Shown piece after piece: positions 1 to 573 of a stretch of 32,281 nucleotides of DNA. The stretch is from assembly GCA_024276305.1 (NCBI GenBank), contig JAJRXK010000021.1, positions 1-32,281 of the forward strand, in the 5' to 3' direction. Positions within the stretch are counted from its first letter, which is position 1; each line of letters starts with the position of its first letter. Below the pieces are notes generated by a model that was not told the origin of the DNA, did not search any database, and saw nothing but the letters and a program-made list of their open reading frames with translations. A program made the position numbers and the translations under genes. The DNA is from Candidatus Krumholzibacteriota bacterium. Its GTDB lineage: Bacteria > Krumholzibacteriota > Krumholzibacteriia > JAJRXK01.

Positions 1-160
1 CCCACAGCAGCACCAAGGCCGAGCTCTCATTGCTGAACGATCCTTGCGTTTTCGTCCGCCGGCGAAACTCGCCGTTCAATCGCTCGATCTGGTTCGTCGT
101 GCGAAGACTCTTCCACTGCGACTTCGGATAGCGGATAGCGTCCCGACTGTTGTGGAAAAA
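1..160 (-). mobile_element. IS256-family (mutator-type) transposase, C-terminal fragment
   Basis: Read on the minus strand, this stretch encodes YPKSQWKSLRTTNQIERLN followed by a basic RRRTK segment and G-SFSNES-ALVLL. That is the conserved C-terminal block of IS256-type DDE transposases (LRTTN-IERLN-E-RRRTK-G-F-N). The frame stays open to about 220 but has no start codon there, and it is stopped by a TAG complementary to 221-223, so the protein is truncated at its N-terminus. The C-terminal end runs off the window edge. It is probably an inactive remnant. Family assignment rests on motif recognition alone. Confidence 0.65.
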
Positions 161-163
161 GGA

Positions 164-230
164 GTTGGCGTAGTCTCTGGGTGAAAACCTAGACGCCCCG
201 AAGTGGGCTAACCCAAAGGACTACGCCAAC
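164..230. repeat. 12-bp inverted repeat pair, possible transposon ends
   Basis: GTTGGCGTAGTC at 164-175 is repeated exactly in inverted orientation as GACTACGCCAAC at 219-230, separated by 43 bases. The pair lies between the transposase fragment and an ATG at 231. Exact 12-mers this close together suggest terminal inverted repeats of an insertion sequence, or the joint of two element ends. No target-site duplication was recognised, so this stays tentative. Confidence 0.45.
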
Positions 231-395
231 ATGCAAGACCATATCACTGCCCTGCCGAGCAGGGAATCCGCAGTTGATCTCCTTCGTCAGACCCTTTCCT
301 CAAGGGTCCGTGAGGTGGCACCACGACTTTCTGCCGCTGACGTAGATGCGCAGGACGAGGCCATCGCCGAGGTGATGGTCTCGGTCAGTGCGCCC
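231..395 (+). pseudogene. Possible N-terminal remnant of a transposase
   Basis: An ATG directly follows the right arm of the inverted repeat. It opens a frame with a helical, acidic N-terminus (AVDLLRQTLSSRVREVAPRL, then a short Ala/Asp-rich stretch). The pattern faintly resembles the N-terminal helix of IS256-type transposases. After about residue 55 the frame loses any protein-like character and runs through a promoter-like sequence. It could equally be a short spurious frame. I do not recognise a function. Confidence 0.22.
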
Positions 396-430
396 GGGGG
401 CGAGGTTTGCGATTCGGTGGCGCTTTCTTT

Positions 431-459
431 TTGCCACGGTGTTCCTCACGGTGTATATT
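431..459 (+). promoter_or_regulatory. Strong sigma-70-type promoter
   Basis: The -35 box TTGCCA (431-436; 5 of 6 consensus) and the -10 box TATATT (454-459; 5 of 6) are separated by exactly 17 bases. A TG pair sits just before the -10 box. Transcription would start near 466 and read into the tRNA-Pro fragment and then apt. It may be the former tRNA promoter or an outward promoter from the mobile element. Confidence 0.6.
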
Positions 460-523
460 GCCGGTCGTTCGCATGCCCGAATCGCCGAATACGCGCCGAT
501 ATCGAGCAGTAACCGAGGCAGCC

Positions 524-573
524 GCTGCTTCGGGAGCAGGAGGTCGGAGGTTCGAATCCTCTCGCCCCGACCA
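524..573 (+). pseudogene. 3' half of a tRNA-Pro(CGG) gene, possible attachment site
   Basis: From the anticodon arm onward this matches a bacterial tRNA-Pro. The anticodon loop is TTCGGGA (anticodon CGG). A variable loop, the T-arm GGAGG-TTCGAAT-CCTCT, the 3' acceptor strand CGCCCCG, discriminator A and an encoded CCA at 571-573 follow. The matching 5' acceptor strand CGGGGCG and a D-arm should begin near 497 but are absent. Position 27 also mispairs with 43. It is therefore a half gene. Site-specific integrases commonly recombine in the 3' half of tRNA genes and leave such a copy, so this may be an att site, with the element lying to the left. Confidence 0.65.

What the first reader, a model, noticed from the sequence alone, without database searches (positions are those of the whole stretch)
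1..573. Possible right edge of a genomic island at a tRNA-Pro gene
A tRNA-Pro(CGG) 3' half (524-573) with no 5' half lies between mobile-element debris on its left and core genes (apt onward) on its right. An element that integrates into the 3' half of a tRNA gene leaves just such a duplicated tail at its far end, with an intact tRNA-Pro at the other end. The transposase fragment at 1-160 fits the element lying to the left, outside the window.
Basis: partly seen in the sequence, partly recalled or inferred. Interest (0 to 1): 0.6.

Follow-up and report, generated by a model that had tools for sequence, protein, structure and literature searches.

The report
Scar of mobile element in tRNA-Pro
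The half tRNA-proline gene is most likely the right-hand attachment site of a mobile element that once inserted itself into that tRNA gene; a small piece of the element's integrase gene still lies beside it, cut off by insertion-sequence debris. This is an ordinary kind of genomic scar.

Summary
Window 525-573 is the 3' 49 nt of tRNA-Pro(CGG), from position 28 (anticodon stem) to CCA, with no 5' half. It matches the intact tRNA-Pro(CGG) of relative G003 49/49, at nearly the same spacing from apt. In relatives the order is tRNA-Pro(GGG) - glycosyltransferase - SurE - Pcm - tRNA-Pro(CGG) - apt - tRNA-Arg(CCT), so the fragment sits in its ancestral place and everything left of it has been replaced.

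Minus-strand 449-315 reads as the first ~45 residues of a P4-type (arm-domain) tyrosine integrase, starting 75 bp from the fragment and cut at ~303-315 by IS256-family debris. A fragment starting at the anticodon stem plus an adjacent integrase is the standard mark of an element in a tRNA gene, so this is probably its attR side, decayed by nested insertion sequences.

Not shown: the other end. The window is the whole contig. No intact tRNA-Pro(CGG), SurE, Pcm or element integrase catalytic domain is in the assembly; the contig with the ancestral left neighbours (C99) stops in the glycosyltransferase gene. An IS-mediated deletion is not excluded. Known kind, low interest. In passing: a dif-like site at 2557-2584.

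The parts
1..136 (-). C-terminal fragment of a Mutator/IS256-family transposase, running off the contig start
   Evidence: PF00872 E 6.3e-10, profile 323-365 of 379; 89% identical to C42:54284-54417
140..314 (+). 5' end of a second IS256-family copy: terminal repeat 140-159, hairpin 163-230, transposase start from 231; its right edge is ambiguous between 303 and 315
   Evidence: 87% to C43:20140-20312; pieces also in C54
315..449 (-). N-terminal ~45 residues of a P4-type (Arm-DNA-bind_3) tyrosine integrase, probable GTG start at 449, reading away from the tRNA fragment, truncated by the IS piece
   Evidence: PF13356 E 0.0095, below curated cut-off; best plasmid tblastn matches are arm-type integrases in register with their N-termini; first of 397 window ORFs with an independent HMM and beaten by 2 of 20,000 shuffles
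450..524 (.). presumed element side of the attachment site, upstream of the integrase start (inferred)
   Evidence: no second copy in the assembly; position only
525..573 (+). 3' fragment of tRNA-Pro(CGG), position 28 to CCA: presumed attR core
   Evidence: 100% to G003 tRNA-Pro(CGG), collinear with apt
624..1187 (+). apt, ancestral downstream neighbour (flank, not part of the element)
   Evidence: Pribosyltran E 6e-14; follows tRNA-Pro(CGG) in relatives
1178..1254 (+). tRNA-Arg(CCT), ancestral downstream neighbour (flank)
   Evidence: ARAGORN, Rfam, syntenic in relatives

Best explanation
The fragment is the attR side of an integrative element that used tRNA-Pro(CGG) as attB through a P4-type tyrosine integrase, with the crossover in the anticodon stem-loop. 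Integration should have left an intact, element-restored tRNA at the far left end and displaced the original 3' half to the right end, next to apt. Shown: the ancestral tRNA-apt junction, the break at position 28, and the debris. Supported by weak but concordant sequence evidence: the integrase N-terminus 75 bp inside. Inferred: the integration event, the intact tRNA at the other end, and the element body. Later the element was damaged: two IS256-family pieces replaced everything past the integrase's first ~45 codons, so this end can no longer supply its own integrase.
For: Intact tRNA-Pro(CGG) directly precedes apt in G002, G003, G004, G029, G036, G025, G012 and others. The fragment is 49/49 identical to G003 and starts at the anticodon stem; in Islander, 3760 of 3919 tDNA islands leave a 3' fragment and 2083 are anticodon-centred (PMC4383910). 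An integrase arm-domain N-terminus sits at the expected place. Intact P4-type integrases next to tRNA/tmRNA genes occur in the same class, one in the same geometry at tRNA-Pro(TGG) in G012. In sister species G001 the contig bearing tRNA-Pro(GGG)-GT-SurE-Pcm ends after 'GCGCGCCT', within two nucleotides of the window's breakpoint.
Against: No intact partner tRNA, no element-type integrase catalytic domain (only two Xer-like housekeeping genes) and no element body in the assembly. The integrase call is below Pfam's curated cut-off and has no close homologue in the class, in viral contigs or by phmmer against solved structures. Contigs of other relatives also end inside or beside this tRNA, which a shared tRNA sequence in co-assembly would explain, so the G001 break is only suggestive.
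Confidence: 0.72

Rival explanations
1. IS-driven loss: IS256-family transposition and recombination deleted the stretch from the glycosyltransferase gene through SurE, Pcm and the 5' half of tRNA-Pro(CGG). The half tRNA is then a deletion scar and the genome has lost this isoacceptor, with CCG read by tRNA-Pro(UGG). A former island may or may not have been involved.
For: SurE, Pcm, most of the glycosyltransferase gene and the tRNA 5' half are absent from the 97.9% complete assembly, while G001, G002, G003, G004 and G029 have these genes. IS256-type debris lies 210 bp away.
Against: Neither IS piece touches the tRNA breakpoint: no terminal repeat lies at 524/525, and 315-524 separates them. 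That spacer carries an integrase N-terminus, and the break falls at a typical attachment position. C99 simply ends inside the glycosyltransferase gene, which looks like an assembly gap.
Confidence: 0.17
2. Assembly chimaera: the assembler joined two loci through the conserved tRNA 3' block, and the real tRNA before apt is intact.
For: Several relatives' contigs end in or at this tRNA (G001, G028, G033, G031, G009), so it is a weak point of short-read assembly.
Against: The left 524 bases carry IS copies found elsewhere in this same genome, so they belong to it. The only other similar block in the assembly (C43) differs at 2 of 50 positions. A chimaera through the block still needs a second block beside an integrase, which again implies an element.
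Confidence: 0.08
3. A functional split or interrupted tRNA: the half is expressed and joined to a separately encoded 5' half, or the interruption is an intron.
For: Only that a 5' half is missing here and that the sister species' contig stops at the same nucleotides.
Against: No group I or II intron or other RNA family in 1-3000 besides tRNA-Arg, apart from one sub-threshold hit on its opposite strand. No 5' half anywhere in the assembly. Mobile-element sequence lies on the other side of the break.
Confidence: 0.01

Closest known systems
Integrative elements in tRNA genes (Islander class, anticodon-centred 'A' sites, 3' tDNA fragment)
   Same: 3' tRNA fragment beginning at the anticodon stem, in the original orientation, next to the original downstream gene, with a tyrosine-integrase start just inside
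   Different: Only one end is visible; the partner intact tRNA and the element body are not in the assembly
P4-type tyrosine integrases with N-terminal arm DNA-binding domain (PF13356)
   Same: N-terminal motif DGLVLRIYVSGRKSW matches the arm-domain motif (e.g. DGLSLKIEPSGRKSWC of the Acinetobacter plasmid integrase WP_152342630.1)
   Different: Only ~45 residues remain and the catalytic domain is gone; it lies on the fragment side, as does the G012 integrase upstream of tRNA-Pro(TGG), whereas at G011 tRNA-Lys and G070 tmRNA the integrase is downstream of the RNA gene
IS256/Mutator-family insertion sequences (PF00872)
   Same: Transposase domain, and terminal repeats like those of other copies in this genome
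   Different: Both pieces here are truncated and nested

Membership tests
Integrative element at a tRNA gene (attR end) | Displaced terminal fragment of a tRNA gene in correct orientation | tested here: met
   525-573, 49/49 to G003 tRNA-Pro(CGG)
Integrative element at a tRNA gene (attR end) | Uninterrupted tRNA-to-flank junction in relatives | tested here: met
   tRNA-Pro(CGG)-apt collinear in many relatives
Integrative element at a tRNA gene (attR end) | Intact cognate tRNA at the other end | tested here: inconclusive
   Not in the assembly, but the region where it should lie is also missing
Integrative element at a tRNA gene (attR end) | Tyrosine integrase gene within the element near an attachment site | tested here: inconclusive
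   N-terminal remnant at 449-315; element-type catalytic domain absent from the assembly
P4-type integrase (PF13356) | Arm-DNA-bind_3 domain | tested here: inconclusive
   E 0.0095, 16.5 bits against a cut-off of 27, less than half the domain present; best of 397 window ORFs with an independent HMM
P4-type integrase (PF13356) | C-terminal catalytic domain (PF00589) | tested here: not met
   Truncated at ~303-315; own-genome PF00589 hits are two Xer-like genes only
IS256/Mutator insertion sequence | Transposase_mut domain | tested here: met
   PF00872 over cut-off for 1-136
IS256/Mutator insertion sequence | Complete element with two terminal repeats | tested here: not met
   Only a 5' terminal repeat (140-159) and two truncated pieces

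The most novel reading that the evidence does not exclude
Both members of the genus carry the same or a related element at the same nucleotides of tRNA-Pro(CGG), close to the chromosomal dif site. In this species it has decayed so far that the intact tRNA was lost, and the lineage now decodes CCG without this isoacceptor.
Probability: 0.08. Interest if true: 0.35.

Novelty: new member of a known kind. Interest (0 to 1): 0.2.

Why it matters
It shows that the tRNA-Pro(CGG)-apt locus of this poorly studied bacterial group is probably a target for tyrosine-integrase elements, and gives exact coordinates for one attachment site. Beyond that it is a routine genomic scar: tRNA-targeted elements with a displaced 3' fragment are very common.

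Tried and rejected
Decayed full-length tRNA: the 30 bases left of 525 score no better than shuffles. Group I intron or other structured RNA: none in Rfam. Intact partner at C43:25607-25684: that gene is tRNA-Pro(TGG), a separate ordinary gene; its nearby IS copy is a dispersed repeat. Clean IS insertion into the tRNA: no terminal repeat at the breakpoint. Frames of 231-512 read on the plus strand: no Pfam hits and only chance-level PHROG hits. Searching viral contigs for the attachment block or the integrase fragment: nothing. Using the G001 contig break as proof of a shared insertion: weakened by similar breaks in G028, G033, G031 and G009. The genome-contig scan with apt returned mostly distant apt genes plus a few class members and did not help.

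Full report
What is there. The window is the whole of contig C4 in a 119-contig assembly (97.9% complete), so nothing lies to its left in the data. Bases 525-573 are the 3' 49 nt of a tRNA-Pro(CGG), from position 28 in the anticodon stem to the CCA end. They match the intact tRNA-Pro(CGG) of family relative G003 at 49 of 49 positions and that of G002 at 48 of 49. ARAGORN and Rfam find no tRNA there, and the 30 bases to the left resemble no tRNA-Pro 5' half.

Ancestral arrangement. Relatives share the order tRNA-Pro(GGG) - glycosyltransferase - SurE - Pcm - tRNA-Pro(CGG) - apt - tRNA-Arg(CCT). In G003 the tRNA-Pro(CGG) to apt spacing is nearly that of the window. The fragment is therefore the original 3' half in its original place, and everything to its left is foreign. 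In this genome contig C99 carries the left neighbours up to tRNA-Pro(GGG) and then ends about 130 bases into the glycosyltransferase gene. The remaining genes of that interval and the tRNA 5' half were not found anywhere in the assembly.

The left side. From the tRNA outward: 450-524 is unassigned, and minus-strand 449-315 is the N-terminus of a P4-type tyrosine integrase (VRNTVAKRKRHRIANLAPGRTDRDHHLGDGLVLRIYVSGRKSWCH). The evidence for the integrase is weak singly but concordant. Pfam PF13356 scores E 0.0095, below its cut-off. tblastn against plasmids returns 237 records at E up to 10, nearly all of them Acinetobacter; most of those listed are annotated as arm-type or tyrosine integrases, with the match near the integrase N-terminus. 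These are largely copies of one protein family, so they count as little more than one observation. An HMM built here from fifteen class integrases, without those plasmid hits, ranks this frame first of 397 window ORFs (10.2 against 2.4 bits), and 2 of 20,000 shuffles beat it. The annotation also falls at the place where an integrase is expected. Homology stops at about 303-315, where an IS256-family 5' end begins: terminal repeat 140-159, hairpin 163-230, 87% identical to C43:20140-20312. Bases 1-136 are a second, oppositely oriented IS256-family transposase fragment.

How it most likely works. A tyrosine integrase recombined the element's attP, which carries a copy of the tRNA 3' part, with the chromosomal tRNA-Pro(CGG), crossing over in the anticodon stem-loop. 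This would restore an intact tRNA at the left end and displace the original 3' half to the right end, where it now sits before apt. Islander reports that 3760 of 3919 such islands leave a 3' fragment and 2083 are anticodon-centred (PMC4383910). The same class has intact P4-type integrases at tRNA-Lys (G011), tmRNA (G070) and, in the same geometry as here, beside tRNA-Pro(TGG) in G012. The integration step and the left end are inferred. IS copies then broke the integrase.

What weakens it. No intact partner tRNA, element body or element-type integrase catalytic domain is in the assembly; the two PF00589 genes are Xer-like, one beside trmFO- and hslU-like genes and the other beside uvrC- and scpA-like genes (neighbours named by eye from their translations). 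An IS-driven deletion is therefore the main rival. In sister species G001 the contig ends after '...GGTTAGCGCGCCT', within two nucleotides of the window's breakpoint. That would fit a shared attachment site, but contigs of G028, G033, G031 and G009 also end inside or beside this tRNA, so assembly breaks at conserved tRNA sequence are an adequate explanation.

Verdict. The far end remains unverified. It is an ordinary kind of feature.

Noticed in passing
window 2557-2584: dif-like site (ATGGCGCATAAGATATATTATGTTAACT; 22 of 28 to E. coli dif as recalled, 0 expected by chance). Similar sites lie a similar distance past tRNA-Arg(CCT) in G002 (L043:10321), G029 (L046:11345) and G036 (L048:393), so this locus appears to be next to the chromosome terminus.
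   Followed up: partly
window 1178-1187: The apt stop codon lies inside the tRNA-Arg(CCT) gene (10-base overlap); in G003 the two are separate.
   Followed up: no
L061:4842-4960 (G000 C54 ~69341-69460): A ~110-bp palindrome made of two opposed ends of the IS256-family element with no transposase, like a small non-autonomous derivative.
   Followed up: partly
L164 / G012:C72 around 1840-2112: Intact P4-type integrase reading away from an intact tRNA-Pro(TGG), 146 bp upstream of it, with no second tRNA-Pro fragment on that 15.9-kb contig.
   Followed up: partly
L044:1-140 (G001:C16 start): Contig start looks like an inverted copy of the apt start (fold-back), probably an assembly artefact.
   Followed up: no
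L005:4000-4313 (G000:C43): Internally deleted IS256-family copy retaining both transposase ends, in a contig that also holds tRNA-Pro(TGG) 5 kb away.
   Followed up: no
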